DNA of 64,000 nt, from NCBI RefSeq assembly GCF_023824195.1, contig NZ_CP085442.1, positions 3,820,001 to 3,884,000 on the forward strand, read 5' to 3'. Positions 8,933 through 61,514 of this stretch are shown in pieces (position 1 is the stretch's first letter; the number at the start of each line of letters is the position of its first letter). A model generated the notes under the pieces. The model saw only the letters and a list, made by a program, of their open reading frames with translations, made no database searches and was not told the DNA's origin. The DNA is from Priestia megaterium. Lineage in GTDB: Bacteria > Bacillota > Bacilli > Bacillales > Bacillaceae_H. Both the position numbers and the translations under genes were made by a program.

Positions 8933-9177
8933 AAAGAGATGGCGACATAACAAAAACCATTCAATCTAAAGACGAACAAACGGGATAAAGGAGCTAGTAT
9001 GAATCGCTCGTTACACCGCTGTTGATTTCCGTGCAACAGCTAGAAGCAGCTACATAGACGAAAACTATGGTCACCATAGAAATAAAAAAATCCGAACGAG
9101 TAGGATTCTCCATCAAGAATCTCAATTCTTCGTTCGGATCTTCATTCAACTAAACTACTTTTTTCCTAGCCTATTTT
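8933..9177. repeat. Dispersed intergenic element, copy A (short form)
   Basis: One of five related copies in the window. It keeps the left end (AAAGAGAT-GGCGACATAAC), the motif AAAGACGAACAAA, the core TTGATTTCCGTGCA and the right-hand terminator stem (TCCGAACGA / TCGTTCGGA, 9091-9139), but lacks the whole GC-rich central module of copies B, D and E. The right end abuts the ggt stop codon, so the stem with its minus-strand T run serves as the ggt terminator. Confidence 0.85.
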
Positions 9178-11256
9178 TTAATTTGTAATAACGTCTCCGT
9201 CTTCATCATCACCGGTATCATCTTCACCAGGATCTTTTTCTAATGACACTACTTTCTTTTCTTCATCCCATTTCACTTTGTAGCCAAGTGATTTTGCTAC
9301 TTTGATAACCGATAAATAGGAGTGATGATTTGGCTTATACAGCTTTAAATCACTCGAATCAATAACGCCTAATCCTAGCAGCAAACGGTCGGACTGTACG
9401 TAAGGCTTTCCATCAATCAGCTTCACTTGCTTATCAGTAAACGGATACACTGCGTTGTTGACTTCAACTGTAAACTCTCCTTTTTTCTCTTCTTTAATTG
9501 GCTTTGGCTGCTTGGATACATATTTAATCGCGTCTACTCCTAACACCGTGCCTTGGCGTGTATTATCCGCACCTCCGTACATTTTCCCTGTTTCATAGTC
9601 ATAGATAACCGCTTGGACGTTTCCAATATGCTCAGGCGTTTCTTCAAACGCATGTCCTTTAGCCATCATTTCAAGGATCGTATCTTGGCTAAATCCTGGT
9701 TCCCATCTTACGGTTGGATAGCCGCCTGAGTAAATGCGTGGAGTTAAAATCGCTTTTTGAATTGGCATCTTATGGTCAATGACATTCATAATCGTTTCTG
9801 CTACAGATGCAATAATGGTTGGACCTCCCGGTGAACCAATTGCCATGAACGGCTTTCCGTCTTTTAACAGCATCGTTGGAGACATGCTGCTTCGAGGACG
9901 TTTTTTAGGCTCAACTTGGTTCACGCCTCCCGGAGCGGCATCAAAATCTGTCATTTCATTGTTTAGCATAAACCCGTAGTCAGGAACCATAATTCCTGAG
10001 CCAAAAACTTGTTCAATGGTAGTAGTATAAGAAACCATGTTTCCCCATTTATCTACAACAGAGAAATGAGTCGTTTGGCCAATTGGATTTTCTTCCGTTA
10101 CCGTTGCTTTATTTGGATTTTCTTTTCCTTCATACTTCCAAGGGTCTCCTTCCTTGACATTAGGCGTTGCTTTATTTGGATTAATTAATTTGCGGCGTTC
10201 TTTAATATAATCTTCATCTAACAGTCCTTTTTTCGGCACTTCGTAAAAATCTTCATCCGCCATATATGCCGCGCGGTCAGCGAAAGCTAAGTGCATAGCT
10301 TCTGTTAAATGCTGCAAATACTGAGGGGTATTGGAACCCATTTTTTCTACATCATACCCTTCCATTAGCTTTAAAATTTGCTGCACTGTTAATCCGCCGG
10401 AGCTAGGAGGAGCCGCACTAACCACATCATAGCCCCGGTAAGTTGTTTTGACTGGCTCGCGTTCTTTTACAGCGTAATTTTTTAAATCATCCATGGTCAT
10501 GCTTCCATCGCGCTTTTGAACTTCTTTAACAAGTGCTTCTCCAATTTCTCCTTTATAAAGAGCATCTGAACCTTCTTTTTGAATAAGTTTTAATGTTTTA
10601 GCAAGATCCGGCTGAACAAGCTTATCTCCTTCTTTTAACGGTTTACCATTGGGGACAAATACATCACCGGCCGTTTGGTATCTTTCAAGCTTGTCCACAT
10701 TTTCATCGATATACTGAGCCATCGACCAATTTACTTTGATTCCTTGTTCCGCTTGAGTAATAGCTGGTTTAATAACATCTGATAAGTCCATTGTTCCATA
10801 ATCTTTAAGGGCTGTTTCTACTCCTTTTAACGTGCCGGGAACTCCAACTGCTTTTCCTGTTATGTGACGCTTACTGAAAGGAATGACTTTTCCTTTTGAA
10901 TCTAAAAATAACTTAGGCGTGACGTCAGCCGGTGCCATTTCACGGCTGTCTAGCATCGTAATTTTATCTTTCTTTTTTTCATAAATTATCATAAAGCCAC
11001 CGCCGCCGATACCTGACATCATCGGTTCCACAACATTTAGAGATAGTTGAATGGCAGCTGCCGCATCTACAGCGTTTCCGCCTTCAGCTAAAACTTTCCT
11101 TCCTGCTTCAGCAGCCAGCGGGTGAGATGCCGCTACAATTCCTTGTGTAGCACCTCGTTTCATTGAATGGTCGACACCCGGAACTTCAGCAGCAGCTGGT
11201 GTGACAACTAAACATACGCTGAATAATGCAATAACCAACATTTTCATAACCTTCAT
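9178..11256 (-). CDS. ggt: Gamma-glutamyltranspeptidase with C-terminal copper-amine-oxidase-like domain
   Basis: A secreted N-terminal-nucleophile hydrolase of 692 residues with a signal peptide (1 to about 23). The proenzyme cleaves itself before the nucleophile Thr (about 393) in GQTTHFSVVD; oxyanion and substrate motifs YTTTIEQ, MLNNEMTDF and GSPGGPTI are present. B. subtilis Ggt is 587 aa; the extra 100 residues here (about 594-680) read as a copper amine oxidase N-terminal-like domain (VEVNNAVYPFTDK, then SYLSVIKVAKSLGYKVKWDE), ending in an acidic tail. It hydrolyses glutathione, glutamine and gamma-PGA ends outside the cell. The start at 11256 follows AAGGAGGAGACCCAG. Confidence 0.92.
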   Translation of the reverse strand: MKVMKMLVIALFSVCLVVTPAAAEVPGVDHSMKRGATQGIVAASHPLAAEAGRKVLAEGGNAVDAAAAIQLSLNVVEPMMSGIGGGGFMIIYEKKKDKITMLDSREMAPADVTPKLFLDSKGKVIPFSKRHITGKAVGVPGTLKGVETALKDYGTMDLSDVIKPAITQAEQGIKVNWSMAQYIDENVDKLERYQTAGDVFVPNGKPLKEGDKLVQPDLAKTLKLIQKEGSDALYKGEIGEALVKEVQKRDGSMTMDDLKNYAVKEREPVKTTYRGYDVVSAAPPSSGGLTVQQILKLMEGYDVEKMGSNTPQYLQHLTEAMHLAFADRAAYMADEDFYEVPKKGLLDEDYIKERRKLINPNKATPNVKEGDPWKYEGKENPNKATVTEENPIGQTTHFSVVDKWGNMVSYTTTIEQVFGSGIMVPDYGFMLNNEMTDFDAAPGGVNQVEPKKRPRSSMSPTMLLKDGKPFMAIGSPGGPTIIASVAETIMNVIDHKMPIQKAILTPRIYSGGYPTVRWEPGFSQDTILEMMAKGHAFEETPEHIGNVQAVIYDYETGKMYGGADNTRQGTVLGVDAIKYVSKQPKPIKEEKKGEFTVEVNNAVYPFTDKQVKLIDGKPYVQSDRLLLGLGVIDSSDLKLYKPNHHSYLSVIKVAKSLGYKVKWDEEKKVVSLEKDPGEDDTGDDEDGDVITN

Positions 11257-11666
11257 CTGGGTCTCCTCCTTCAAATACATTATTTCACATCGCCTGAGAC
11301 GATGGATTTCCCCAAGAATAAATTAGTTTATTATGATATTTTTTTACATATGTGTATAAATAAAAAGCAAAGTAAATCACACCTTTGCTTTTTTAGTTAG
11401 TCGCATGTTTAACTTTTATCTCTATTTATTTACAATTATCTATATTTTCTAACAATTTATCCATAGGCTGATAGTTTCTTACTATTTTTGGAACTATGTA
11501 GACTGAACGCTCTAATAATGTAAAAAATCTTGCAGTGAAGAAGTCATTCGACTCACATTCACTTCTTGAAATATTTATAAATATTCTTATTGTTATATAA
11601 AAAGCAATCCTTTGTGAAAATGAGCACACGTTTCTTGAAAACCAAAAATAAAACAGGACTTTTGAT
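11257..11666. other. 410-bp intergenic region upstream of ggt
   Basis: AT-rich. It must contain the ggt promoter, not pinned down here. Besides the hairpin at 11362-11394 there is only a 67-codon open frame (minus, 11629-11426) of unconvincing composition. A small RNA ending at the hairpin is possible but unsupported. Confidence 0.4.
11362..11394 (-). terminator. Hairpin terminator in the ggt / TPR intergenic region
   Basis: AAAAAGCAAAG pairs with CTTTGCTTTTT. T runs exist on both strands; the nearest minus-strand gene that could use it is the TPR gene ending 270 bases earlier. Confidence 0.6.
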
Positions 11667-12167
11667 TCAATGTCCTGTTTGCAGCATGTTTTCGACTTTT
11701 TTTATACCCGTATGAGCAGGATCGATTTCCTTGGCATAGGCGATCTGTTCTTTCGCTTTTTCGATTTCTTTTAATTGAATATATGTTTTAGCAAGTTCGA
11801 GCGGCAGCATAACCCCTTCAAAACCAAGCTCTTGCGCCCGCTGTAAATAAAACAGCGATTTTTCGTAATTCCCTCCAAACATAAGCGGAGTCTCCCGGTA
11901 TTTTACTCCTCGAACGAAGTGCGCCAAGCTTGAAGATGGATTTAATGTTAATGCCTGATGAAGAGCTCGGTCCATTTCTAAATTTAACACCATTTTTTCA
12001 AAAACAATGGATTCTTCGATTTGCTTTGCTAAACAAACCGCTAGGTAACAGTATAAATCAGATGCTTCAGGTTTTTTCTTCATTTCTTGTTGAATTTCGC
12101 GTTTGATTTCTTTCCACTTACCCTCTTCTAGCTGATTCATGACGTATTCTACATGTATTCCCACCAC
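11667..12167 (-). CDS. TPR-repeat protein
   Basis: A cytoplasmic helical protein of about 166 residues. The C-terminal half contains tetratricopeptide-like pairs (SLFYLQRAQELGFEG, then LPLELAKTYIQLKEIEKAKE and AYAKEIDPAH), and the central part another degenerate unit (ALHQALTLNPSSSLAHFVRG). Such proteins are adaptor surfaces; the partner cannot be told from the context. The GTG at 12167 follows GGAGGG at proper distance; a second GTG is directly next to it. Single-gene unit. Confidence 0.72.
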   Translation of the reverse strand: MVGIHVEYVMNQLEEGKWKEIKREIQQEMKKKPEASDLYCYLAVCLAKQIEESIVFEKMVLNLEMDRALHQALTLNPSSSLAHFVRGVKYRETPLMFGGNYEKSLFYLQRAQELGFEGVMLPLELAKTYIQLKEIEKAKEQIAYAKEIDPAHTGIKKVENMLQTGH

Positions 12168-12282
12168 TTTGCCCTCCTTTTCCTCTTTATCATAAAGGAT
12201 TTCTGCACAAATGAAAAAAGTAAGTGTTCTTCATTCTTCTCAAAAGATCGTTACCGTTAAAAAATAGGCAAATTTCTCAATC

Positions 12283-12308
12283 ACTTAACCCAATTAGTAC
12301 ATAGGATA
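12283..12308 (+). promoter_or_regulatory. Sigma-K-like promoter of the first YjcZ gene
   Basis: CATAGGATA (12300-12308) fits the sigma-K -10 pattern CATANNNTA, with AC 15 bases upstream (12283-12284). It lies 30 bases before the start codon. The weak information content of sigma-K sites limits certainty. Confidence 0.5.
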
Positions 12309-12338
12309 TAGAGAATTTTATTAAAGGAGGTTACACAT

Positions 12339-12425
12339 ATGGGTGCAAAAGGCGGTTTTGGTTTTTCATTTATCGTTGTTTTATTTATTCTATTAGTAAT
12401 CGTAGGGTGTTCTTGCTACTACTAA
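12339..12425 (+). CDS. YjcZ-family sporulation micropeptide
   Basis: A 28-residue peptide with the family pattern: a Gly-rich N-terminus (MGAKGGFGFS) and a single hydrophobic helix IVVLFILLVIVGC, ending CSCYY. It starts 6 bases after a perfect AAAGGAGG. YjcZ proteins are tiny membrane peptides of Bacillus endospores with unknown biochemical role. This copy is unusual in carrying two Cys near the end. A hairpin follows the stop codon, and a second family member lies convergent at 12613. Confidence 0.85.
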   Translation: MGAKGGFGFSFIVVLFILLVIVGCSCYY

Positions 12426-12431
12426 TTTCTA

Positions 12432-12458
12432 AAGGGGATGAACATCATTCATCCCCTT
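12432..12458 (+). terminator. Terminator after the first YjcZ gene
   Basis: AAGGGGATGAA pairs with TTCATCCCCTT around a short loop; only a short T-rich tail follows. Confidence 0.7.
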
Positions 12459-15125: not shown

Positions 15126-15138
15126 CACTCTTCCCCCT

Positions 15139-15270
15139 CAAAACGCTTGCGAAGTTAGCTGTCGGGTTCGGGTTTTAAGAGTAACCCTACCTTTTTAAGG
15201 ATTCACCCCAGAGCACAATATGTGCATAAATAATGGGTCCTCCGCTCCATAATGGATTAAGCGATTTTTA
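15139..15270 (-). ncRNA. c-di-AMP riboswitch (ydaO/yuaA class)
   Basis: The minus strand shows the conserved blocks in order: TCGCTTAATCC, GGAGCGGAGGACCCA, GGGGTGAATCC, AAAAGGTAGGGTTACTC, ACCCGAACCCGACAGCTAAC, and a closing GCAAGCG that pairs with CGCTT at the 5' end. This class senses c-di-AMP and normally turns genes off; the founding members lie upstream of ydaO and yuaA (ktrA). Its place before ktrAB and the terminator after it agree with that. Confidence 0.94.
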
Positions 15271-15388
15271 TTGACATGTCTATGATCTATTTTTTAGAAT
15301 AATCGATTCGATTCATGATACGTTTCACTTCACGAAAGCTATCTTACTCCTGTGAATTTTGTCTGTCAAGGTATTTTTAGCGAAGACA

Positions 15389-15967: not shown

Positions 15968-16423
15968 TTGAAAATTGATGAAATTGATTTATCGATTCTG
16001 CAGGCGCTGCAGCAAAACAGCCGTCTTTCCTTAAGAGAGCTGGGAAAACAAATTAACTTGTCTCCTCCTTCAGTGGCAGAGAGAGTACGACAGCTAGAAA
16101 GCTTTGGTGTTATAAAAAGGTATACGATTGATATTGATTATGAGAAGCTGCATTTACCCGTATCATGTTTTATTGAAGTAACTATGAAAAACGGAGAGCA
16201 TGAGCGTTTTAAGCGATTTATTTCTCAGTATCCCTATGCTTTATTCTGTGAACGCATCGCCGGGCAAGCCTGCTTTATTACAAAGCTTCAGCTTCCTCAC
16301 CTGCACGTACTCGAACAATTTATTAACGAAATTACACCTTATGCAAAAACGATTTCACACATCGCCCTTTCTCACGTGGAGATGTCTTCTGCATTACTGA
16401 GTCATTTAAAAGATGAAAAGTGA
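15968..16423 (+). CDS. Lrp/AsnC-family transcriptional regulator
   Basis: A 151-residue protein: N-terminal helix-turn-helix (IDLSILQALQQNSRLSLREL, then INLSPPSVAERVRQLESFGVI) and a C-terminal RAM domain (about 65-145) typical of feast/famine regulators. It probably senses an amino acid; the divergent AhpD-like gene is a candidate target. The TTG at 15968 follows GAAAGAAGG. Oddly, the last Lys codon and the stop codon lie within the left end of repeat copy B, so the C-terminus seems to have been finished by the inserted element. Confidence 0.82.
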   Translation: MKIDEIDLSILQALQQNSRLSLRELGKQINLSPPSVAERVRQLESFGVIKRYTIDIDYEKLHLPVSCFIEVTMKNGEHERFKRFISQYPYALFCERIAGQACFITKLQLPHLHVLEQFINEITPYAKTISHIALSHVEMSSALLSHLKDEK

Positions 16424-16766
16424 TTGAAACGTAACGAAAGCAGTTCAATTTACAGACGAACAAATGGAATAAAGGAGCTCGTATGAACCATTTTTTACAC
16501 CGCTGTTGATTTCCGTGCAAGGCTTCGCTTTCCGCGGGCGGCCGGTGAGCCTCCTCGTCGCTTCCGCTCCTGCGGGGTCTCGCCTGTTCCGCTTTTCCCG
16601 TAGGAGTCTTCGCCTTGCCCTCCACTCAACCGCTAGAAGCAACTACACATATTAAGTCTACGTTCACCCTACTAATGAAAAAGATTCGGACGCGTTTGAT
16701 TCTCCATCAAGAATCAAACGCGTTCGAATCTCCCTTTAACGAAAATACTTTTATCCCAGCTTCTTT
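16417..16766. repeat. Dispersed intergenic element, copy B (long form)
   Basis: The left end AAAGTGATTGAAACGTAAC overlaps the end of the Lrp gene. The GC-rich central module (about 16520-16620) contains complementary blocks such as GCAAGGC/GCCTTGC and CTCCTGCGGGG/CCCGTAGGAG. The right module is a long stem GATTCGGACGCGTTTGATTC pairing with GAATCAAACGCGTTCGAATC (16683-16731), and the right end is TCCCAGCTTCTTT. There is no convincing ORF inside. Confidence 0.88.
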
Positions 16767-27772: not shown

Positions 27773-28729
27773 ATGGTGAGACATTTGGAAGAACGTACAG
27801 AACGTAAACAACATAAAAGAAAAAAGCAAAGAAAAAAGAAACGCTTTAGTAAGCTACTTCTTTTCTTTCTCATTCTTGTAATCGCCGCTGGTGCGTATGT
27901 GTATTATCAATACCAACAAGGGTTAGCAGAAGCAGACGGAGCTTTTGGGAAAGATGGACAGTTTGATTTTAATGGTGCAAGTGCCAATTTAGATAGCATG
28001 AATGTGCTGCTTCTTGGAATTGACTCTCGAGGTGAAGAACATTCGCGTGCCGATACAATCATGATTGCTCATTATGACAAAGACAGCAATCAGCCTAAAA
28101 TTGTTTCTTTGATGCGTGATTCATATGTGGATATTCCCGGACATGGCAAAAACAAATTAAATTCAGCCTATGCATTTGGCGGGCCCGAATTAATGCGTAA
28201 GACAATTAAAGAAAATTTCGGCGTAGATGTAAACTATTATGCCGTTGTTGATTTTAAAGGTTTTTCTAAAGTTGCCGATACCATTGCCCCTGAGGGAATT
28301 ACGGTTACCGTGCCACACGAAATGTCATCAGGAATTGGAATGACGCTAAAACCTGGAAAACAAACTCTTCACGGAGATAAATTACTAGGATATGTGCGAT
28401 TCCGACACGATAGCCAAAGTGATTTCGGGCGCGTGAAGCGTCAACAAGAAGTTATTGGTAAATTAATGGATGAAGCTCTTCAAGTAAAGACGCTGGCGAA
28501 AGCTCCTAAGCTATGGGGCGTCATTGATCCATATGTGGATACAAACATTCCGCCAAAAACATTTATCGTGATAGGAAAAGATTTCTTAGTTGGAAATCAG
28601 CCAGATTTAAAATCTCTTCGTTTACCGGTCGAAGGTTCCTATTCAAATGAACGAGTATCCGGTATTGGTGCTGTTTTAAGCATCGACCTTGAAGAAAACA
28701 AACAAGCGTTACAGTCATTTTTAAATTAG
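27773..28729 (+). CDS. LytR-CpsA-Psr (LCP) family wall polymer ligase
   Basis: A protein of about 318 residues: a very basic cytoplasmic head (RKQHKRKKQRKKKRF), one membrane helix (about 32-52), and an extracellular LCP domain with MNVLLLGIDSRGEEHSRADT, SLMRDSYVDIPGHG, and the Arg/Asp-containing GYVRFRHDSQSDFGRVKRQQ. LCP proteins move teichoic acid or other polymers from lipid carrier to peptidoglycan. A close paralogue lies at 47149. The start is uncertain, since no good ribosome site precedes the ATG at 27773; a TTG at 27785 after GATGGTGAG is an alternative. Confidence 0.88.
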   Translation: MVRHLEERTERKQHKRKKQRKKKRFSKLLLFFLILVIAAGAYVYYQYQQGLAEADGAFGKDGQFDFNGASANLDSMNVLLLGIDSRGEEHSRADTIMIAHYDKDSNQPKIVSLMRDSYVDIPGHGKNKLNSAYAFGGPELMRKTIKENFGVDVNYYAVVDFKGFSKVADTIAPEGITVTVPHEMSSGIGMTLKPGKQTLHGDKLLGYVRFRHDSQSDFGRVKRQQEVIGKLMDEALQVKTLAKAPKLWGVIDPYVDTNIPPKTFIVIGKDFLVGNQPDLKSLRLPVEGSYSNERVSGIGAVLSIDLEENKQALQSFLN

Positions 28730-30832: not shown

Positions 30833-31047
30833 AAAGAGATTGAGACATAACAAAATCACGCCAATCTAAAGACGAACAAATGGTGTAAATGATCGAGTAT
30901 GGATCACTTCTTGCACCGCAGTTGATTTCCATGCAAGGCTTCGCCTTGCCCTCCACCCAACTGCTAGAAACAACTAAAATGAAAAGATCCGAACGATTCA
31001 TCATTCGGATCTTCTTTGAACTAACATACTGTTGTCCTAGCCTTTTT
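30833..31047. repeat. Dispersed intergenic element, copy C (central module deleted)
   Basis: Left end AAAGAGATTGAGACATAAC, AATCTAAAGACGAACAAATG, then GCAAGGCTTCGCCTTGCCC where the long copies carry about 100 more bases. The deletion junction lies on TTCGC, which flanks the module in the long copies. The right stem is ATCCGAACGA / TCATTCGGAT, with minus-strand T run; the right end TGTCCTAGCCTTTTTT lies 9 bases from the opuFB stop codon, so it should end that operon. Confidence 0.87.
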
Positions 31048-31056: not shown

Positions 31057-32580
31057 TTACTCTTTAATTAAGCCTTTTTCCACTAAGAATTGATGAGCAA
31101 CTTCTTCAGCCGTTTTCCCTTTCGCATTTACTTGATAGTTCATTTCACGCATTTCGTCATCACTGATTTTACCGCCCAGTTGATTTAAGATTTTTTTCAG
31201 TTCAGGGTGCTCTTTTAGCGTATCTTCACGAAGCACAGGCGCTCCTTGATACGGAGGGAAGAACTGCTGATCGTCTTTTAAGACTTTCAAACCAAACTGT
31301 TTGATTTCAGGATCCGTTGCGTAAGCATCAAGCATGTTAATATCGCCTTTTTCTACAGCGCGATAGCGAAGCTTCGGCTCCATCGTTTTAATATTCGGGA
31401 AGGTAAGGCCATATTCTTTTTGAATGCCTACGTAGCCGTCTTCACGATCTTTAAACTCAAGCGTAAATCCTGCTTTTACTTTATCTGTTGCATTTGCCAA
31501 ATCTGAAATAGTCGTTAGATTATTTTCTTTGGCAAACTCTTTTGTCACGGTCAATGTGTACGTATTATTAAACTTCATTGGATCTAAATAGACAAGGCCG
31601 AATTTCTTTTGAAATCCTTCTTTTGCCTGCTTGTACACCTGTGTTTCATCTTTGCTGTCCGGCTGTTCCTTTAGATGCGTCACAATGGCTGTACCCGTAT
31701 ATTCAGGGTACAAATCAATTTCCTTGTTACGCAGAGCCTCAAATACAAATACCGTTTTCCCAAGCGACGAACGCATATTTACTTTCATATCGGTTTGATC
31801 TTCAATTAATTCTTTGTACATATTAATTAAAATATCTTGTTCTGCACCAATTTTCCCTCCGATAACAAGGTCTGGTTTTGTTGCGCTCATCGCTGCAAAC
31901 GGAGAAACAAGAATGAGTATTAATACGATGATCATACTGAACGAGCGTTTTTTGGACCCTTTTTTAGCTGAGTGTTCAATCGTTCGCAGAATTCCATCAA
32001 AAATAAGCGCTAATAATGCTGCTGGAATGGCTCCTAATAAAATCAAACTATTATCGCTTCGGTCAATACCAAGCAAAATTAAGCTTCCCAGTCCGCCCGC
32101 TCCGATAAGAGCCACGATTGTCGCTGTACCAATGATGAGTACCATCGCTGTGCGAATTCCGGCCATAATGACAGGAAGTGCTAGAGGAAGTTCTACTTTG
32201 ATTAATCGTCTCCACGAGTTCATCCCCATGGCTTTGGATGCTTCAATTAAAGATGGGTCCACTTCTTTAATTCCGGTATATGTATTTCGTACAATAGGAA
32301 GAAGCGAATATAAAAACAGTGCAATAACCGCGGGAAAGGTTCCAATTCCGACAAGAGGAATCAGTAATCCTAATAAAGCGAGTGAAGGAATGGTTTGCAG
32401 TACGGCTGTTACGCCAATGATCGGTTCAGCAATGCGGTCATGCCTCGTTAAGTACAGTCCGAGCGGCACTGAAATTAATACCGCGATAACAAGAGCCAGT
32501 ACTGAAATTTGAATGTGTTCAAGAAGAGCTTGAAACAGTGCATCTCCTCGTTGATCTAATAATGTGCTTAGTGCATTCAT
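31057..32580 (-). CDS. opuFB: Osmoprotectant ABC transporter, fused permease and binding protein (OpuFB)
   Basis: A 507-residue fusion. Residues 1 to about 210 are a BPD-type permease with six helices and the EAA motif (EASKAMGMNSWRRLIKVELPLALP). After a linker helix (about 218-235) comes an OpuAC-type substrate-binding domain (about 240-507; KPDLVIGGKIGAEQDILINM, LDPMKFNNTYTLTVTKEFA, KILNQLGGKISDDEM). It faces outside and takes up glycine betaine or similar compatible solutes. This matches the two-component OpuF system described in Bacillus. It shares 1 base with the opuFA stop. Confidence 0.9.
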   Translation of the reverse strand: MNALSTLLDQRGDALFQALLEHIQISVLALVIAVLISVPLGLYLTRHDRIAEPIIGVTAVLQTIPSLALLGLLIPLVGIGTFPAVIALFLYSLLPIVRNTYTGIKEVDPSLIEASKAMGMNSWRRLIKVELPLALPVIMAGIRTAMVLIIGTATIVALIGAGGLGSLILLGIDRSDNSLILLGAIPAALLALIFDGILRTIEHSAKKGSKKRSFSMIIVLILILVSPFAAMSATKPDLVIGGKIGAEQDILINMYKELIEDQTDMKVNMRSSLGKTVFVFEALRNKEIDLYPEYTGTAIVTHLKEQPDSKDETQVYKQAKEGFQKKFGLVYLDPMKFNNTYTLTVTKEFAKENNLTTISDLANATDKVKAGFTLEFKDREDGYVGIQKEYGLTFPNIKTMEPKLRYRAVEKGDINMLDAYATDPEIKQFGLKVLKDDQQFFPPYQGAPVLREDTLKEHPELKKILNQLGGKISDDEMREMNYQVNAKGKTAEEVAHQFLVEKGLIKE

Positions 32581-36756: not shown

Positions 36757-36954
36757 GTGAGTTCAATTTATGCAAGCGAAAAATCTTGCGTTCATGTCCT
36801 TTATTTTCTCGACTTTTTTAGTCCTATAATCCTTTTATATCAATATATCGTCGGGATATCGTTCATTTTTTTGAAAAGAACATTTGTGTAAACGCTTTAA
36901 ATCATGTATCATAAAGTTGGACCATGAGTCTAATTTTATATTTAGGTGATAATA

Positions 36955-37857
36955 ATGAATAACCGAAAACAGCAAGTTGTAAAAAATGCACACCATCTCT
37001 TCGTTGAAAAAGGATTTCAAGCTACATCTATTCAAGACATCATTGATTATAGCGGCATTTCAAAAGGAACATTCTACAACTATTTTTCTTCAAAAAATGA
37101 ATTATTAATCGCTGTTTTTACCTGGCTTCATACAACAATTGAACAAGAGCGCAATCAGCTGCTGGTTGGTAAAAGCCTGACCGATGTAGATGTATTTGTT
37201 AAACAGATTGATGCACAGATGAAAAACCACCATAAACATAAATTTTTTACATTACTTGAAGAAGTATTTGTTTCCAATGATCCTGATTTAAAAGCATACA
37301 TAAAAAAAACCCAGTTTATTGAAGTAAACTGGGTTTACAAGCGGTTCATTGATTTATTTGGACAGGAAAAGAAACCGTACCTGCTAGATTGTGCAATTAT
37401 GTTTCTTGGCATGCTTCATCGCAACTTTCACTATAATTTTATGGTTAACGGCACAAATACTGACCCGCATGAGATCATAAGCTACAGCGTTAAGCGCCTG
37501 CTTCCTCTTGTAGACGAAGTAGCAAATTCAGGAGACATTTTGCTCGATCCGCAAACGATTAAAGAATGGCTTCCATCTTGCCCGAATACTAAAAATCAAA
37601 TAGAACAGGACATTTCTACAGCACTTATCGATTTAAAAAAACAAGTTCACAAACAATTTACTGATGAATTCGAACGCCAAAAATGCACAGAGCTTATTAG
37701 TTTTATTGAAGAAGAGCTGTTTAAACAGTCGACTCCCCGCAAGTTTGTTGTTGATAGTGCTCTTCATTCATTAAAGCAGCTGTCTGTCAACAAAAGTAAG
37801 ACAACGCTAGAGGATTTAGAGGCGATGATTGATCAGTATGTGAGTGAACTTCATTAA
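36955..37857 (+). CDS. TetR-family regulator, likely controlling the divergent MFS pump
   Basis: A 300-residue protein, long for the family (usually about 200). The N-terminal helix-turn-helix is canonical (ARHLFVEKG-like AHHLFVEKGFQATSIQDIID, then GISKGTFYNYFSSKNELLIA). The ligand domain is extended by about 100 residues with a predicted helical end (DLKKQVHKQFTDEFERQKC...). Start at 36955 after TTTAGGTGATAAT. The stop codon is directly followed by repeat copy D. Confidence 0.85.
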   Translation: MNNRKQQVVKNAHHLFVEKGFQATSIQDIIDYSGISKGTFYNYFSSKNELLIAVFTWLHTTIEQERNQLLVGKSLTDVDVFVKQIDAQMKNHHKHKFFTLLEEVFVSNDPDLKAYIKKTQFIEVNWVYKRFIDLFGQEKKPYLLDCAIMFLGMLHRNFHYNFMVNGTNTDPHEIISYSVKRLLPLVDEVANSGDILLDPQTIKEWLPSCPNTKNQIEQDISTALIDLKKQVHKQFTDEFERQKCTELISFIEEELFKQSTPRKFVVDSALHSLKQLSVNKSKTTLEDLEAMIDQYVSELH

Positions 37858-38211
37858 AAACAAATTAAGCCATAACGAAATCATTCCAATTTAAAGTCGA
37901 ACAAATGGAATAAAGGGACTCGTATGGATTGCTTGAGACACCGCTTCCGCTGTTGATTTCCGTGCCAGACTTCGCTTTCCGCGGGCGACGGTGAGCCTCC
38001 CCGTCGCGTACGCTCCTGCGGGGTCTCACCTGTTCCGCTTTTCCCGCTGGAGCCTTCGTCTTGCCCTTCAATCAACAGCTAGAAGCAACTAAACATACGA
38101 AACCTATATTTACCCTACCAATAAAAAAATCCGAATGCGTTTGATTCTCCCTCAAGAATCAAACGCATTCGGATCTTCCTTCAACTAAATAATTTTTGTC
38201 CCAGCCTCTTT
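37858..38211. repeat. Dispersed intergenic element, copy D (long form)
   Basis: The element fills the space between two convergent genes from stop codon to stop codon. The left end AAACAAATTAAGCCATAAC follows the TetR TAA directly; the right end GTCCCAGCCTCTT overlaps the stop codon of the kinase gene by 2 bases. Central GC-rich module about 37968-38070; the right stem ATCCGAATGCGTTTGATTC pairs with GAATCAAACGCATTCGGAT, 18-19 bp without mismatch, followed by T7 on the minus strand. Confidence 0.9.
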
Positions 38212-39484
38212 ATTCACAAAGGGGAAATTCAAGTGAAAAACACGTTTCTTTTCCTTTTATGCTAGACACACTCACTTTTCCCTTCATATAATGAATAATA
38301 CTGAAAGATACCATCGTTCCAAGCCCCGTACCTTTTTCTTTTGTTGTAAAATACGGTTCTCCTAACCGGTTGATTTGTTCTTGCGTCATACCGCAGCCTG
38401 TATCGATAATATCCACAATAACAACCCCGCCTTCTTTTGCTACTTTAACGGTTAACGTGCCTCCATTTTGCATGGCTTCAATACTATTTTTAAATAAATT
38501 GATTAGGCACTGCTGAAGCTTTCTTCTTTCTCCCATTACGAAGAACTTCACTTCTTCATCAAAGGTAAAATCAATAGCGACTCCATTCATATTTGCAAGA
38601 GGCGTCATAATATGGGTGACGTGATGAATCTCTTCTGAAATATTCATTTTTTCATTTCGTTCCGGAGCAGAATTGGCAAACAGCAAGTAATCATCAATGA
38701 TTTCTTTTGCACGATCTAGTTCATTAATCGCAATGGAAATGTAGCGTTTTTTAGCAGGTTCTTTTTCATCTTCTTGCAGCATTTGCATAAATCCTCTGCT
38801 TGCAGTTAGAGGATTTCGCACCTCATGAGAGATGCTGGCGGCCAAATGACTGACAATTTCTAGTTTTTCTGCTTTCATCAGGCGCTGCAGCACTAATAAA
38901 TTTGCCCGTATCGCTTCCCAGAGTATGGTAATCACAAACATGCCTGCTACATCTAAAATCGCGAATTGAACCCACACGCTAATAGGAATGCTTGTTACGT
39001 GCAAGACAAAAATAGATACAAGCATAGCTAATAAAGAACCGACTACACTAAGACAGGTGCTCACGATAATTCTATTTTTTAATGAGAAATGTAAAAAGTA
39101 TTTTGTTATGAAAAATAAAGGAATGGATAAAATCGGAAGAGCAATTAATGTTGATAAAAACCCTACATCGTACCCGCCAATTAGCAAGCGCAGCAGTAAA
39201 ATAAAGACAAAAAGCAAGCTTCCTAGCGGCCAGCCTCCATATAACGTTCCTAAAATATAAGGAATTCTTCGTAAATCCATTCGATAGTCATCCGGGACAT
39301 AAGCTCCGTTAACCGGAAACAAAAGGCAAAAGGTAATGGCTAAAATCGGAAATACCGCGATATAACGATCTTTCCACCAATGAATTTTTTTAGCATACTT
39401 GATTAAATAAAACATCTGCACTAAAAACAGCGCCAATAAAATAAATAAAAAATTAATTAACAAATCTTTCGTGACAAAACTCAT
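38210..39484 (-). CDS. KinB-like membrane histidine kinase (5TM-5TMR_LYT sensor)
   Basis: A 424-residue orphan kinase with six helices in the first 190 residues (5TMR_LYT-type sensor: FPVNGAYVPDDYRMDLRRIP and GTLYGGWPLGSLLFVFILLL) and a HisKA/HATPase core: H box LAASISHEVRNPLTASRGFM, N box INLFKNSIEAM, G boxes DTGCGM and TGLGTMVSFSII. It resembles KinB of B. subtilis (428 aa), which feeds phosphate to Spo0F at sporulation onset. No response regulator lies next to it, which fits a phosphorelay kinase. Start after CCGGTGAATGC. Confidence 0.82.
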   Translation of the reverse strand: MSFVTKDLLINFLFILLALFLVQMFYLIKYAKKIHWWKDRYIAVFPILAITFCLLFPVNGAYVPDDYRMDLRRIPYILGTLYGGWPLGSLLFVFILLLRLLIGGYDVGFLSTLIALPILSIPLFFITKYFLHFSLKNRIIVSTCLSVVGSLLAMLVSIFVLHVTSIPISVWVQFAILDVAGMFVITILWEAIRANLLVLQRLMKAEKLEIVSHLAASISHEVRNPLTASRGFMQMLQEDEKEPAKKRYISIAINELDRAKEIIDDYLLFANSAPERNEKMNISEEIHHVTHIMTPLANMNGVAIDFTFDEEVKFFVMGERRKLQQCLINLFKNSIEAMQNGGTLTVKVAKEGGVVIVDIIDTGCGMTQEQINRLGEPYFTTKEKGTGLGTMVSFSIIHYMKGKVSVSSIKGKETCFSLEFPLCE

Positions 39485-54701: not shown

Positions 54702-55002
54702 ATTCATCAAGAACTTTCAGATTTTAATCAAAAACACAGCGATTGGGAGTAGTAGAAGCTTATTATTCGGTCAAGAGAGCTACGGGTTGGTGCAACGTAG
54801 TCCAATAATACTTTGAACTCGCCCAGGAGTGGTAATTCAGAAAGAATGCAGAAGTATTCTCTAAGTTTTAACGTCTAACCTTCGTTATCAGGTTTTAAGC
54901 AGGGTTCTTTAAGAGCCAACAAGAGTGGTACCGCGGTCAGCTAAAGCTTATCGTCTCTTCTCTCATTTGATAATGAGGTAGGAGACGATAAGCTTTTTTT
55001 AT
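54702..55002 (+). ncRNA. T-box leader (tRNA-sensing riboswitch), probably for tRNA-Phe
   Basis: Stem I shows GGGAGTAGTA (loop E strand), AAGAGAGCTACGGGTTGGTG and the return strand ending TTTGAACTCGCC. The conserved T-box AAGAGTGGTACCGCGG lies at 54920-54936, followed by the terminator stem AAAGCTTATCGTCTC / GAGACGATAAGCTTTTTTT (54943-55001). The triplet before the conserved GAAC is TTT, followed by a purine as required, which suggests a UUU (Phe) specifier. Uncharged tRNA would allow read-through into the permease gene. Confidence 0.92.
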
Positions 55003-57400: not shown

Positions 57401-58039
57401 TTATGACCTAATAATTGTTTTTCTTACTTCTTCCGCTAACGGTTGAAGAGGCGTAATAATACGGTCGCTTACCTCCGCCGCCGCTTCTACCATCGAGAGC
57501 TGCGCCACTGAAACAACAGTGTTATGCTCTTTTATTAGCTCATGTAAGACATGTTTCACCTTCTGTTTATACTTCTCTAGGTTTCCAGTCATTACTAGTT
57601 CAAAAGCACCTTCTATCACAACAGGGCGAACCTTTATCTTTACATTTTGATAAAATGCAAATTCGTCTAGACGCTTCATTGTTCCTTCTACGGTCTCCGG
57701 ATTTGTAAATACGATAAGCTGCGGTTCTTCTATTTCACATATTCGGCGAAAATAAGGCTCATCGATTTTAATAATTGGAACATCGCTTGTAAATGCTTCT
57801 GGTAAAAGAGCAATGTAATTCGTACACGTAAGTAAAATGGCATCCGCTGAACATTCCTCCATCCACTTTAACTGCTTCTCTACTTCTGCAGCTGCTGACT
57901 CCGCTGCAAACTTAGGGTCGGTTGTTACCCGATGTACAAGTCCAGGGTCTACGAAATGCATACAGTTCGCAAACGGCAGCGCTTTTTCTATATAAGAGAT
58001 GTTCGAATGATGAGCGTGCAGGCAAGCAATTTTCTTCAT
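57401..58039 (-). CDS. Aspartate/glutamate racemase-superfamily protein
   Basis: A 212-residue Asp/Glu/hydantoin racemase-fold protein. The first half carries a Cys in ILLTCTNYIALLPEAF (about 76), like the catalytic Cys in such enzymes. The second position, where racemases have GCT, reads VSVAQLSMVEAA with no Cys. This one-Cys pattern recalls maleate isomerase or arylmalonate decarboxylase relatives rather than a two-base racemase. It shares 4 bases with the lysR stop, so the LysR gene is upstream in the same operon. ATG after GGGGGGAGAACT. Confidence 0.75.
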   Translation of the reverse strand: MKKIACLHAHHSNISYIEKALPFANCMHFVDPGLVHRVTTDPKFAAESAAAEVEKQLKWMEECSADAILLTCTNYIALLPEAFTSDVPIIKIDEPYFRRICEIEEPQLIVFTNPETVEGTMKRLDEFAFYQNVKIKVRPVVIEGAFELVMTGNLEKYKQKVKHVLHELIKEHNTVVSVAQLSMVEAAAEVSDRIITPLQPLAEEVRKTIIRS

Positions 58040-58935
58040 AGTTCTCCCCCCGTATGATGGTCTTTGAAATACTGAATTAAAAATTCCTGGAACTTCTTCG
58101 CAACAGGAGTTAAATATTTATCCTTGTTCCACGCAATCCCAATTACCCTTGAAGCTGTGTCTTCTTTGAGCTTTATTTTTTTAATGCCTCGCAAGTCCAC
58201 TCCCTTTATTTCAGGAAGCAAAGCAACCCCTAAATGAGCCGCTACAAAACCAATCACCGTCAAAAATTCTTCTCCTTCAAACGTAATATTTGGCACAATT
58301 TCGGCTTCTTCAAACAGCTGATCAAAAATTGTTCGGCTTCCGTATCCTTTTTTTAACGCGATAAACGATTCATGAGCCAACTCTGAAATCGAAAGCACTT
58401 GCCTTGAGGCAAAAGAATGCGTATCAGGGACATACGCGTACAGCTCGTCTTTCCATAAATATTCCCACTGAATTCCTGCCCTAGATTCCGTTACGGAAGA
58501 CATACAAAAATCAATTTCCCCCGTTTGAAGCTGATCGAGCATGATGTTCGTGGCGTTCTCAAAAATTTGAAATTGAACGTTCGGATACTCTTGTAAAAAA
58601 GCATGAACTAGTTTTGGGACAGACGAAGCGCCTAATGATTTTAAAAAAGCAAACGAAATACTGCCGCGGTGAGGGTGGATCAAATCTGAAAGCTCACGTT
58701 TAGCTTCTTCCATTTCGTTTAATACTTTAGCCGTTCGTTCGTAAAAAAGCCGTCCGTATCGATTTAAAATGACTTGTCTTCCTTTTCGTTCAAATAGCGG
58801 CACGCCAAGCTCTGATTCTAATTTAGAAATTGAGCGGCTGAGCGTAGGCTGTGCGATTGATAATTGTTCCGCAGCCTTTGTGAAATGTTCCGTTTGAGCT
58901 ACAACATTAAAATATTCGAGCTGCTGCCATTCCAT
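58036..58935 (-). CDS. LysR-family transcriptional regulator
   Basis: A 299-residue LysR protein: N-terminal winged helix (MEWQQLEYFNVVAQTEHFTK, QPTLSRSISKLESELGVPLF) and a two-lobed ligand domain (about 90-290). It resembles B. subtilis YwbI/GltC-type regulators. Its gene precedes the racemase-like gene with a 4-base overlap and is divergent from a TSUP transporter (155 bases), the usual layout for a LysR controlling a divergent target. Start at 58935 after AAAGGATGTGAAAAA. Confidence 0.85.
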   Translation of the reverse strand: MEWQQLEYFNVVAQTEHFTKAAEQLSIAQPTLSRSISKLESELGVPLFERKGRQVILNRYGRLFYERTAKVLNEMEEAKRELSDLIHPHRGSISFAFLKSLGASSVPKLVHAFLQEYPNVQFQIFENATNIMLDQLQTGEIDFCMSSVTESRAGIQWEYLWKDELYAYVPDTHSFASRQVLSISELAHESFIALKKGYGSRTIFDQLFEEAEIVPNITFEGEEFLTVIGFVAAHLGVALLPEIKGVDLRGIKKIKLKEDTASRVIGIAWNKDKYLTPVAKKFQEFLIQYFKDHHTGGEL

Positions 58936-59090
58936 TTTTTCACATCCTTTACTCATTACATAATACTATCAATTTCATATAAATTATACATTGGACGTCA
59001 TAAAAAATTCATGTTTAAATGAAGAACGTAGCACTTGCCGAAAATGTTATGTGTCTGCATAGAATAAGTGTTGAAAGAAGGAATTAGTTT

Positions 59091-59840
59091 ATGGATGTTT
59101 CAATTGTTTTAACAATGTTAGCCGTCGGACTGATCTTAGGGTTTGTCGGAGCAGGCGGATCAGGTTTTATTATTTCAATTTTAACGCTGCTGTACGGCGT
59201 ATCTGTACACGTTGCACTCGCAACGGCTCTTACCGCAATGATTTTCTCTTCTTTATCTGGCGCAGTCAGTCATTACCGCGAAGGTAACGTATCTTTAAAA
59301 TCCGGTATCTCTGTTGGTATCCTCGGTGCATTAGGCGCTTGGATTGGGTCTAACCTTTCATCCTTTATCCCAGAAGGCGAGCTAAAATGGCTCACAGCCG
59401 GTATGCTTTTATTATCTGGCGTTTTACTTTGGCTGCGAATGTTTTTATTTTCCCGTCAGCAAAAAGAACGTACGATTCCAACAGGAGCTAAATTTGTCGT
59501 TTATTCTTTACTAATTGGCTTAATTACTGGTGCGCTGTCAGGAATGTTTGGAATTGGATCAACTCCATTTATCCAGCTTGGCCTTATGATGGTGTTAGGC
59601 TTGTCTATTCGCCAGTCGGCTGGAACGACTATGCTCGTTATTATTCCCATTGCCATCGGCGGAGGAATGGGCTATTATCAGCAGGGTTTTTTAGATATTC
59701 CGCTGTTGATCCAAGTAGTAGTCGGCACAATGGTCGGTTCATATATTGGAGCAAAGTTTACAAATCGCGTACCTGCTCCCGTATTAAAAACGTCCCTTGT
59801 AGCGCTGCCTATTTTCTCTAGCTTCCTACTTGTTATATAA
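59091..59840 (+). CDS. TSUP-family anion transporter, LysR-linked
   Basis: A 249-residue permease with about eight helices and two glycine motifs (LGFVGAGGSGFIISILTLLY and LSGMFGIGSTPFIQLGLM). It is likely an uptake or export carrier for an organic sulfur or carboxylate compound which the LysR and racemase-like protein sense and process. Start after GAAAGAAGGAATTAGTTT. Only distantly similar to the TSUP protein at 39756. Confidence 0.83.
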   Translation: MDVSIVLTMLAVGLILGFVGAGGSGFIISILTLLYGVSVHVALATALTAMIFSSLSGAVSHYREGNVSLKSGISVGILGALGAWIGSNLSSFIPEGELKWLTAGMLLLSGVLLWLRMFLFSRQQKERTIPTGAKFVVYSLLIGLITGALSGMFGIGSTPFIQLGLMMVLGLSIRQSAGTTMLVIIPIAIGGGMGYYQQGFLDIPLLIQVVVGTMVGSYIGAKFTNRVPAPVLKTSLVALPIFSSFLLVI

Positions 59841-59842
59841 GA

Positions 59843-59876
59843 AAAAAGCTTGAACTCTTGTTCAAGCTTTTTTTAT
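59843..59876. terminator. Bidirectional terminator, TSUP / acetyltransferase
   Basis: AAAAAAGCTTGAAC pairs with GTTCAAGCTTTTTTT around TCTT. Confidence 0.9.
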
Positions 59877-60356
59877 GTCCATCTGATAAACAAACTGCTT
59901 TCCTTGGCTTCCAAAAATATGCCGGTTTGTATCCACAAAGCCGCTTCGGATGTACAGGTGCTGCGCGGTCGTGTTTTTATAGTTCACCCCTAGCACCACT
60001 TCATTTTTAGTCGGAAAGTGATGGTTGATAAAAGCAGGAAGAAATTTCAATGACTTTTTGCCAACTCCCTTTCCTTGATAATCAGGATGAATGGAATACG
60101 ACCGTATTAAAAGCGCGCCGGAGCTTTTGGTATATTCTTTAACGGCTTCCCCTGCGTCGAGCACGAAAAAGCCGGCTAGTTTGTTTTCTGCCAAAATCAA
60201 AACGGGCGTTCTGTCCTTTTCCTGCTCACACTTAGCTAAGGATTCAGCGGGAAGTGCCGTATAAATAAGCTGCTCTTCAGGCAGCGTATAGCTATGTATA
60301 GATGACTCGTAGGCTTCACTATAAAACGTTAGTGCTACGTTTACTGTATTATCCAT
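59862..60356 (-). CDS. GNAT-family N-acetyltransferase
   Basis: A 164-residue acetyltransferase with motif A RSYSIHPDYQGKGVGKKSLK (about 92-111) and the final VLGVNYKNTTAQHLYIRSGF. The start at 60356 lies 8-10 bases after AAAAAGGAGTAAGG; a longer frame runs back through the terminator of the preceding gene and is not used. Substrate unknown. Confidence 0.85.
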   Translation of the reverse strand: MDNTVNVALTFYSEAYESSIHSYTLPEEQLIYTALPAESLAKCEQEKDRTPVLILAENKLAGFFVLDAGEAVKEYTKSSGALLIRSYSIHPDYQGKGVGKKSLKFLPAFINHHFPTKNEVVLGVNYKNTTAQHLYIRSGFVDTNRHIFGSQGKQFVYQMDIKKA

Positions 60357-60393
60357 TCTATACCTTACTCCTTTTTCCATAGTATAACATGCA

Positions 60394-60423
60394 CAAAAAA
60401 AGCCGCATAAAGCGGCTTTTCCT
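60394..60423 (-). terminator. Terminator after the SDR gene
   Basis: AAAAGCCGC pairs with GCGGCTTTT around TTTA; on the minus strand seven T residues follow. Confidence 0.88.
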
Positions 60424-61065
60424 TTATCTAGCGTCGGATACAACGGTAAAGCGTTCGTTTACATGCTCTCCTCGCTCAATTTCATCAATGACTGCAATGG
60501 CATAATCAGCATAGCTGACATGGCTGTTTCCTTCTGAGTTTAAAATAACATGATCTTTCCCTGTTTTATAAGCATCCGTTCGTTTTCCTGAAGGATTAAA
60601 AAATGCTGCTGGGCTAATAAACGTCCAATTAATATCGCTTGTACTTTCTAAGTCTTTTAAATTTTGGGTTTGATTGTCAGCTGTCGCTTTGTATTCTTTT
60701 GGAAAATCAGGCGTATCCGCTAGACGCGTCGTTTTCTCTTCATCAACAAACAAACTGCCTGCTCCTCCTACAACAAGAAGACGAACGTCCGGAGCTTGTT
60801 TAAATACATGAATTAACGACTGCCCCGCTTCTACATGCAAATGTTCTTTTCCTTCAGGAGCTCCAAACGCATTCACTACTGCATCGAAACCTTCAATATC
60901 GTTTGCCGTAATATCAAAGATGTCTTTTTCCAATGTACGAACATCTTTTTCTTCTACTTTGCTCGCATCACGTACAATTGCCGTTACGTCATGCCCCCGA
61001 TTTAAAGCTTCTTTCACGATAAAACTTCCTGCTTTTCCTGTAGCACCTACGACTCCAATTTTCAT
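60424..61065 (-). CDS. NAD(P)-dependent atypical SDR (YwnB-like)
   Basis: A 213-residue NAD(P)-binding protein of the NmrA/YwnB group, the same length as B. subtilis YwnB. The dinucleotide loop is GVVGATGKAGSFIVKEALNR, followed by VVNAFGAP, LLVVGGAGSLFVDE and FISPAAFFNPSGKRT. It probably reduces or senses redox cofactors. Start after ACTGGAGGTTTTAAA. Single gene with its own terminator. Confidence 0.87.
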   Translation of the reverse strand: MKIGVVGATGKAGSFIVKEALNRGHDVTAIVRDASKVEEKDVRTLEKDIFDITANDIEGFDAVVNAFGAPEGKEHLHVEAGQSLIHVFKQAPDVRLLVVGGAGSLFVDEEKTTRLADTPDFPKEYKATADNQTQNLKDLESTSDINWTFISPAAFFNPSGKRTDAYKTGKDHVILNSEGNSHVSYADYAIAVIDEIERGEHVNERFTVVSDAR

Positions 61066-61162
61066 TTTAAAACCTCCAGTAAAATTCTCTATATTTAGGT
61101 ATTAGCCTCTTTTTGCTCTGCTAAAACACGGCGAAACGGTTTAAGTAAGATAGTGAACGAAT

Positions 61163-61514
61163 AAAGAGATTGAGACATAACGAAATCACTCCAATCTAAA
61201 GACGAACAAATGGGATAAATGAGTTAGTATGATCGTTTGTTACACCGTGGTTGATTTCCGTGCAAGGCTTCGCTTTCCGCAGGCGGCCGCTGAGCCTCCT
61301 CGTCGCTTGTGCTCCTGCGGGGTCTCACCCATTACGCTTTTCCCGCAGGAGTCTTTGCCTTGCCCTCCAATCAACCGCTAGAAGTACCTACATACACGAA
61401 ACCTACGTCCTCCATCACCATAAAAAGATCCGAACGTGTTGGATTCTCAACTAAGAATCTCCATTCATCGTTCGGACCTTCCTTCAACTAAAATACGTTT
61501 GTCCCAGTCTCTTT
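61163..61514. repeat. Dispersed intergenic element, copy E (long form)
   Basis: The clearest copy: left end AAAGAGATTGAGACATAAC and right end GTCCCAGTCTCTTT are imperfect inverted repeats of about 16 bases. Central GC-rich module about 61265-61365 with CTCCTGCGGGG / CCCGCAGGAG arms. The right stem GATCCGAACG / CGTTCGGACC follows, with minus-strand T run. It ends 20 bases from the mgtC stop codon, where it can act as the mgtC terminator. The small open frames inside it are not conserved between copies. Confidence 0.9.

What the first reader, a model, noticed from the sequence alone, without database searches (positions are those of the whole stretch)
8933..61514. Five-copy dispersed intergenic element, all in one orientation
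Seen directly: copies at 8933-9177, 16417-16766, 30833-31047, 37858-38211 and 61163-61514 share an ordered set of blocks: left end AAAGAGATTGAGACATAAC, then AAAGACGAACAAATGG, TTGATTTCCGTGCAAGGC, a GC-rich core, GCTAGAAGCAACTA, a TCCGAACG...CGTTCGGA stem, and right end TGTCCCAGCCTCTTT. The ends are imperfect inverted repeats and the inside is a nested set of stems, so the element could fold as one long RNA or cruciform. It carries no conserved ORF. Five copies in 53 kb imply hundreds per genome. It is like a MITE or a structured RNA repeat rather than a coding transposon. Similar GC-rich blocks occur, from memory, in other Bacillaceae, but I cannot name a described family with certainty.
Basis: seen in the sequence. 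Interest (0 to 1): 0.85.

Follow-up and report, generated by a model that had tools for sequence, protein, structure and literature searches.

The report
Mobile repeat that overwrites gene terminators
A short gene-less transposon is scattered in many copies through a soil bacterium's genome, and at the sites that could be compared with related strains it sits just past a gene's end in place of that gene's own transcription stop signal, apparently supplying a new one.

Summary
The five copies are real. Read on the minus strand, the element begins at AAAGAGGCTGGGACA, usually a few bases after a stop codon. The genome (Priestia megaterium group) has 149 left ends. Of 67 copies from two genomes, 62 have an end within 25 nt of a stop codon; random placements, 31 of 533. 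At eight compared sites (five clean) the element-free allele has an A-tract/hairpin/T-tract terminator where the element sits. IS1182-family transposons elsewhere in Bacillales have the same ends and several sit in terminator hairpins; hairpin replacement is published for IS1272. Best reading: a non-autonomous IS1182-family MITE that replaces terminators and carries its own directional terminator-like hairpin (38 of 41 copies). Its GC-rich core is a covarying nested hairpin, also found antisense just upstream of IS1182-type transposase genes in 11 genomes (one read by hand); function unknown. No IS1182-type transposase was found in the five element-rich Priestia genomes, and no IS seen has both ends and core, so the parent is unresolved.

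The parts
8933..9177 (-). Copy 1: element lacking most of the core; begins within about 2 nt of the stop codon of ORF 9178..11280 (-)
16417..16766 (-). Copy 2: full element; its right end abuts the stop of the convergent ORF 15968..16423 (+), so it is reversed relative to the gene it follows
30833..31047 (-). Copy 3: deleted element (short stem 1, no core); left end about 10 nt after the stop of ORF 31057..32580 (-)
37858..38211 (-). Copy 4: full element between two convergent stop codons (ORFs 36946..37857 + and 38210..39484 -)
61163..61514 (-). Copy 5: full element; left end about 21 nt after the stop of ORF 61535..62227 (-)
38197..38211 (-). Left end of copy 4, AAAGAGGCTGGGACA, shared with IS1182-type transposons (e.g. 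L204, L210)
37858..37876 (-). Right end of copy 4 (read on +: 4 mismatches from AAAGAGATTGAGACATAAC)
38126..38178 (-). Stem 1 of copy 4 (CCGAATG..CATTCGG) followed by a T tract on the - strand: directional terminator-like hairpin
16680..16732 (-). Stem 1 of copy 2
61424..61480 (-). Stem 1 of copy 5
9086..9142 (-). Stem 1 of copy 1
37951..38077 (-). GC-rich core of copy 4: nested hairpin module also found upstream of IS1182-type transposase genes
61250..61375 (-). GC-rich core of copy 5
16504..16630 (-). GC-rich core of copy 2

Best explanation
The element is a non-autonomous transposon (MITE) of the IS1182 family. Its ends are recognised by an IS1182-type DDE transposase that targets DNA hairpins. 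Transposition removes the hairpin of an intrinsic transcription terminator and puts the element between the terminator's A-tract and T-tract, so the copy lies just after the stop codon. The element carries its own hairpin plus T tract (stem 1), which in the usual orientation can stop transcription of the upstream gene, so the insertion is tolerated. Copies then decay by internal deletion, some to little more than stem 1, which looks like an ordinary small terminator. Shown here: position, terminator hairpins in the free alleles, identity of ends with IS1182-type transposons, hairpin targets of several of these, covariation of the core, decay forms. Inferred: the transposase step, the direction of replacement, termination activity, and selection as the cause of the orientation bias.
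For: 62 of 67 copies have an end within 25 nt of a stop codon of a frame of 90+ codons, against 31 of 533 random placements in the fetched loci of this genome. Element-free alleles at 8 sites (5 window copies, 3 of the 4 G003 copies looked at) each hold an A-tract/hairpin/T-tract terminator at the element's place (folds -9.4 to -23.9 kcal/mol); clean cases are c1, c3, c5, L100 copy 1 and L101b. The arms are kept: AAAAAAGAA|hairpin|TTCTTTTTT in G008 against AAAAAAGAA|element|TTCTTTTT in G003. In the 60 of 67 copies with both ends found, the 6 nt outside the ends are more complementary than reshuffled flanks (0 of 2000 shuffles as high). Of 30 IS1182-type loci fetched, nine have GAGGCTGGGACA at one or both ends; L204, L207, L210 and L211 have CAAAA at one end and CATAACTA at the other, as our family has CAAAAG and CATAAC; 17 of 17 nt of the G003 consensus left end match L204 and L210. 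Transposases of L141, L210, L133 and L132 exceed NCBIfam's IS1182 cut-off. Relatives sit in hairpins: all five copies of one 521-aa type in G014 lie in a terminator loop; in G002, G154 and G195 a terminator hairpin stands on both sides of the IS. Papers, passages read: IS1272 replaces inverted repeats without target duplication (PMC5678879); TnSha1/IS1272 enters hairpins, several confirmed as terminators, with partial deletion (PMC4923244). Stem 1 is followed by 6 or more T in 8 nt in 38 of 41 copies on the sense strand, 0 of 41 on the other.
Against: No DUF772 (IS1182-type) match in the five element-rich Priestia genomes G000, G001, G003, G007, G008 and no match to the L141 transposase there (where 4 candidates per genome were scored): no partner in hand. 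No IS seen carries both the exact ends and the core; the end polarity (CAAAA/CATAAC) sets the core in the opposite sense to the core-bearing IS, so a plain transposase deletion is not shown. Copy 4's comparison is confounded by a segment of about 6.5 kb next to it in G001, G007 and G008. Copy 2's element-free hairpin is weak (-11.2), and the G008 allele of L100 copy 2 may hold a remnant of an element end. Flank pairing comes mostly from A/T at positions 1-3; positions 4-6 give p = 0.047, 4-10 p = 0.16 and 7-10 p = 0.53. Five of 67 copies are near no stop codon. Several Bacillales relatives duplicate the hairpin or its loop rather than replace it, so replacement is not the only mode.
Confidence: 0.85

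Rival explanations
1. Terminator exchange by ectopic recombination: element copies spread as donor tracts, crossing over in the shared A-tract and T-tract of terminators, with no transposase.
For: A- and T-tracts flank both alleles; no transposase match in the element-rich genomes; one junction (copy 4) goes with loss of a segment of about 6.5 kb at a shared TAAAGAG.
Against: Ends are sharply defined and match IS1182-type transposon ends over 16-17 nt; autonomous relatives occupy the same kind of site. Tracts of a few A or T are short for recombination (established knowledge).
Confidence: 0.08
2. A structured 3'-UTR RNA element kept for a host function (mRNA 3' end processing or regulation), repeated because many genes need it.
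For: Same-sense position after stop codons (left end only 42, right end only 7; p = 4e-7); conserved nested structure with compensatory changes in the core.
Against: Neighbour strains lack it at the same genes and have plain terminators; copies lose the core and other parts; no strand skew of G-U against A-C; the core is also found antisense upstream of transposase genes.
Confidence: 0.05
3. A REP-like element moved by a single-strand (HUH/Y1) transposase that recognises the hairpin.
For: Palindromic, intergenic, next to stop codons, high copy number.
Against: Has terminal inverted repeats matching a DDE family and is about 350 nt long. HUH genes in the genome were not searched.
Confidence: 0.02

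Closest known systems
IS1272 / TnSha1 (IS1182 family, Staphylococcus; PMC5678879 and PMC4923244, passages read)
   Same: Targets hairpins, several confirmed as transcription terminators, and replaces or partly deletes them without target duplication.
   Different: IS1272 encodes a transposase and occurs in 14 and 15 copies in the two strains described; this element has no room for one, 149 left ends in one genome, and its own terminator-like hairpin and core. Letters of IS1272 were not compared.
IS1182-family transposons of Bacillales found here (by ends: L202-L207, L209-L211; by core: L132, L133, L136, L166, L170, L174, L177, L182, L192, L195, L200)
   Same: Same ends (first group) or same core (second group); several sit at hairpins.
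   Different: They carry a transposase frame; no single one seen has both the ends and the core.
MITEs assigned to ISMac2 (IS1182 family) in Methanosarcina acetivorans (PMC3852290, one table passage read)
   Same: Non-autonomous IS1182-family derivatives.
   Different: 160 and 169 bp, 14 and 7 copies, archaeal host; terminator replacement is not mentioned in the passage read.
SPRITE of Streptococcus pneumoniae (PMC3049150, passages read)
   Same: Terminator-like repeat enriched close to 3' ends of genes.
   Different: 30 copies in the genome studied, ends AAAA/TTTT only, no comparable empty site found, 18 bp duplex; no sequence comparison was made here.
bcr1 of the Bacillus cereus group and the stem-loop families Bhal-1, Bhal-2 (PMC2267715, passages read)
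   Same: Structured intergenic repeats of Bacillaceae.
   Different: 147-167 nt (bcr1) and 74-76 nt (Bhal); their letters were not available, so identity of Bhal-1 or Bhal-2 with part of the core could not be tested.

Membership tests
MITE of the IS1182 family | Terminal inverted repeats match those of an IS1182-family transposon | tested here: met
   Left end of the G003 consensus 17 of 17 nt identical to L204 and L210; its far end shares GACATAACTA with L202, L204, L207, L210, L211, and three of the five window copies share GACATAAC (by eye); families by NCBIfam
MITE of the IS1182 family | No transposase gene inside | tested here: met
   At most about 358 nt; copies 4 and 5 hold no ORF of 80 aa, and the short ORFs that overlap copies 1-3 lie differently in each
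MITE of the IS1182 family | Partner transposase in the same genome | tested here: not met
   0 DUF772 matches in G000, G001, G003, G007, G008; 0 protein matches (4 candidates per genome scored). Not strictly required of a MITE: the partner may be lost
MITE of the IS1182 family | Insertion at hairpins | tested here: met
   8 of 8 compared sites have a hairpin in the free allele, 5 of them clean
MITE of the IS1182 family | Shown to move when transposase is supplied | not testable with these tools
   needs a bench test
Rfam RNA family | Score over a family's gathering threshold | tested here: not met
   Only T-box, c-di-AMP riboswitch and tRNA in the window; permissive search of copy 4 gave 9 matches, all below gathering
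Intrinsic terminator | Hairpin followed by a T tract in the sense of the upstream gene | tested here: met
   Stem 1 found in 41 of 44 copies; 38 of 41 have 6 or more T in the next 8 nt on the sense strand, 0 of 41 on the other; activity not tested
bcr1 / Bhal-1 / Bhal-2 repeats | Sequence match to the described repeat | not tested
   sequences of those families not in the passages read

The most novel reading that the evidence does not exclude
IS1182-type transposons and their gene-less derivatives are a general engine of terminator turnover in Bacillales: hairpin-replacing transposition overwrites host terminators by the hundred and leaves new ones behind as copies decay, while a conserved, covarying GC-rich hairpin module of unknown function (about 130 nt) is shared between IS1182 lineages with different ends and kept even in derivatives without a transposase gene, because it is needed in cis for hairpin-targeted transposition or for control of the transposase.
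Probability: 0.4. Interest if true: 0.75.

Novelty: new variant of a known kind. Interest (0 to 1): 0.6.

Why it matters
A mobile element that replaces terminator hairpins and brings its own gives a direct, testable cause of differences in terminators between related bacteria, and a warning that some 'native' terminators in Priestia may be transposon remains. The conserved core gives a concrete handle on how IS1182-type transposons recognise hairpins or control their transposase.

Tried and rejected
H-type pseudoknot in the core (CTCCTGCGGG with CCCGCAGGAG crossing GGTGAG/CTCACC): the extra helix is no better paired than shuffled letters (87.2% against 87.2%), so rejected; the nested structure is the supported one (97.5%).

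Catalytic or regulatory RNA on one strand: no G-U/A-C skew (10 to 5; 8 to 12); left open but not favoured.

Rows dropped: of 53 core hits in the diverse loci and the window, 46 were kept after removing gappy and identical rows; 39 of these, with 9 from transposon loci, went into alignment A2. The 7 left out by hand were near-duplicates or divergent, ragged rows. With all 46 rows the corresponding 25 pairs are 96.3% paired, so the choice does not make the result.

Rfam: nothing. Letters of the core and ends in papers: two hits, by their titles unrelated, listing only. Name searches in the held library gave no description of this repeat among the titles listed; ISfinder and most subscription papers are not held, so a prior name may exist.

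Phages: no match. Plasmids: 15 records of Priestia and other Bacillales; 11 of 15 cover 37% of the query or less, in the core region.

Covariance-model scan of 398 Bacillota genomes: 4 positive, but only 8 candidates per genome were scored out of 100 or more in the rows shown, so absence there means nothing; I do not use it. The DNA scan of 61 genomes (41 with a match at E 1e-3) is the better guide; its list of places is capped.

L195 (G006, same genus) first looked like an IS with the Priestia-type end plus core; closer reading showed an IS with ends GAGGGTGTCCCAAAAGG / GAGGCTGACTCAAAAGG nested in another MITE. Entry 5 also gives L202 as CAAAA/CATAAC; it has CATAAC at both ends.

Recalled leads, later tested: that IS1182-family elements such as IS1272 replace hairpins (then found), and that the core is common in Bacillaceae (then tested).
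Full report
Observation. They read naturally on the minus strand: AAAGAGGCTGGGACA (left end), a hairpin ATCCGAACG..CGTTCGGAT followed by a T tract (stem 1), a GC-rich core of about 130 nt, and GTTATGTCTCAATCTCTTT (right end). Copies 1 and 3 are internal-deletion forms. The genome is of the Priestia megaterium group: the protein at 38210-39484 is 98% identical to one of P. aryabhattai B8W22. It holds 149 left ends with up to 2 mismatches, 79 on + and 70 on -, none for the reversed pattern.

Position. I took 44 copies of this genome (the 40 strongest places, of which 3 are in the window; the other two window copies; and 2 more found in the fetched loci) and 23 copies of the relative G003 (20 fetched regions). 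Either end lies within 25 nt of the stop codon of a frame of 90 or more codons in 62 of 67 (41 of 44 and 21 of 23); random placements in the fetched loci of this genome do so in 31 of 533. Median distance from stop to left end is 4-5 nt. Only the left end is at a stop in 42 copies, only the right end in 7 (p = 4e-7), both in 13, neither in 5. The sample was drawn by similarity to copy 4, not by place; for the same reason the higher pairwise identity in G003 (median 91% against 82%) only suggests more recent spread there.

What the element replaces. All five window sites are free of the element in G003 (5 of 5). Four G003 copies (two in L100, two in L101) were examined in G000, G001 and G008: three have an element-free allele in at least one of these; the fourth is present in shortened form in G000 and G008. 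At these eight sites the free allele has an A-tract, a hairpin and a T-tract at the element's place (folds). The clearest: G000 and G001 AAAAAAG-CCTTATTGAAAAATAAGG-CTTTTTTT against G003 AAAAAAG-AGACTGGGACA..GCAATCT-CTTTTTTT; and G008 AAAAAAGAA-ACGTTCACTTTATGTGGACGT-TTCTTTTTT against G003 AAAAAAGAA-GAGGCTGGGACA..TTAATCTC-TTCTTTTT. Clean cases are c1, c3, c5, L100 copy 1 and L101b. Against: c4 goes with loss of a segment of about 6.5 kb, c2's free-allele hairpin is weak, and the G008 allele of L100 copy 2 may keep an element remnant. The free alleles have different hairpins while the element is one family, so replacement of terminators by the element is the simpler direction; a rooted tree was not made.

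The transposon family. Searches of the order for the DUF772 domain (107 of 199 genomes) and for the L141 transposase (138 of 299 genomes) gave IS1182-type transposons; the four transposases tested exceed the NCBIfam IS1182 cut-off (L141, L210, L133, L132). Of the 30 loci fetched, nine (L202-L207, L209-L211) have GAGGCTGGGACA at one or both ends; L204, L207, L210 and L211 have CAAAA at one end and CATAACTA at the other, as in our family (CAAAAG and CATAAC); L202 has CATAAC at both, and L203, L205, L206 and L209 have CAAAA at both. Sites of such transposons: all five copies of one 521-aa type in G014 lie in a terminator loop (the sixth DUF772 place there, L142, was not resolved); in G002, G154 and G195 a terminator hairpin stands on both sides of the IS, and in G018 the same is inferred across contig ends; L204 and L208 have short complementary arms outside their ends. 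Sites of the other loci were not resolved. This fits published IS1272 behaviour: inverted-repeat replacement without target duplication (PMC5678879, passages) and insertion into hairpins, several of them terminators, with partial deletion (PMC4923244, passages). None of the five element-rich Priestia genomes has a DUF772 or L141-like match.

The core. A DNA search with copy 4 found matches in 41 of 61 genomes; in the capped list of places those outside Priestia cover mostly the core alone. The core is flanked by different ends in different genomes: GGCCACTGAAAAA in G025, AGGCTnTGTTAAA in G032, GAGGCTTGGCCAAAA in G018. In an alignment of 48 cores (39 from diverse loci and the window, 9 from transposon loci) a nested four-helix structure is 97.5% paired, with 12 of 25 pairs changed on both sides (51 cells against 8.9 in shuffles; slid controls 38-51% paired). 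In the 46-row alignment that keeps the rows I had dropped, the figure is 96.3%. There is no strand skew. Of 80 transposon loci scanned, 14 have a core. In 11 of the 14, from 10 genomes, it lies 6-196 nt upstream of the stop-to-stop transposase frame and is antisense to it. The other three are L179 (G054, an eleventh genome), L138 and L137, where the script chose a wrong frame; read by hand against the DUF772 frame they fit the same pattern, with only a partial core in L137. Sense-oriented cores were found downstream of the frame in L166 and L195, as second copies. So the core is a module of IS1182-type leaders in a minority of the loci seen, and gene-less derivatives keep it. Its role is unknown: a DNA hairpin used in transposition, or a leader that controls the transposase, are both open.

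How it most likely works. An IS1182-type transposase, not found in these strains today, moved the element by its ends and joined it at the foot of a terminator hairpin, the target hairpin being lost (inferred from IS1272 and from the alleles). The element's stem 1 has 6 or more T in the next 8 nt in 38 of 41 copies on the sense strand and in none on the other, so in its usual orientation it can serve as the terminator of the upstream gene; this may explain the 42 to 7 orientation bias by selection (inferred). Internal deletions leave short hairpins such as CCGAACGATnnATCGTTCGG (37 in G000, 32 in G001, 11 in G003, 28 in G007, 38 in G008, 0 in G004 and G009, up to 2 mismatches; some of these lie inside longer copies). 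This is seen directly at one site: G000 and G001 have the left end and stem 1 only, G003 a near-full copy, G008 a plain terminator.

Standing. This is a MITE of a known transposon family with a known target preference, so not a new kind. Not found in the searches listed under Tried and rejected: the scale of terminator replacement, the self-borne directional terminator, the decay to small terminators, and the conserved core shared between IS1182 lineages. ISfinder and most subscription papers could not be checked.

Noticed in passing
window 15129-15273 (-) and 54730-54961 (+): c-di-AMP riboswitch and T-box leader at Rfam gathering threshold.
   Followed up: no
at window 37858-38206; in G007 C33:4095-10622, G008 C1:3693706-3700284, G001 C6:723503-729911: A segment of about 6.4-6.6 kb lies here in G001, G007 and G008 and is absent from G000 and G003; in those three an element copy sits at its edge after another gene.
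   Followed up: partly
L050-L052 and L133 (G025): Core-bearing elements and an IS1182-type transposon appear to be inserted at the GGGCTACGCCC-type hairpin of another core: nested insertion, the core being a target as well as a passenger.
   Followed up: partly
L125 (G008:C1:3133450-3133900): A terminator allele followed by GATTGAGACATGACTAAACCCACCTCATTT, which resembles a worn element right end: possibly an element later replaced in part by another terminator.
   Followed up: no
L132, L166, L170, L174, L177 leaders: These transposons begin with CAGACTGTAGACAAA, a hairpin and a T tract: a terminator-like left end that could shield the transposase gene from outside transcription.
   Followed up: no
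window about 28001-28452: A stretch of about 450 nt matches a second place on the other strand at 71-72% identity, about 21 kb further on in G003 and 26 kb in G001 and G008 (another contig in G007); probably a paralogous gene.
   Followed up: no
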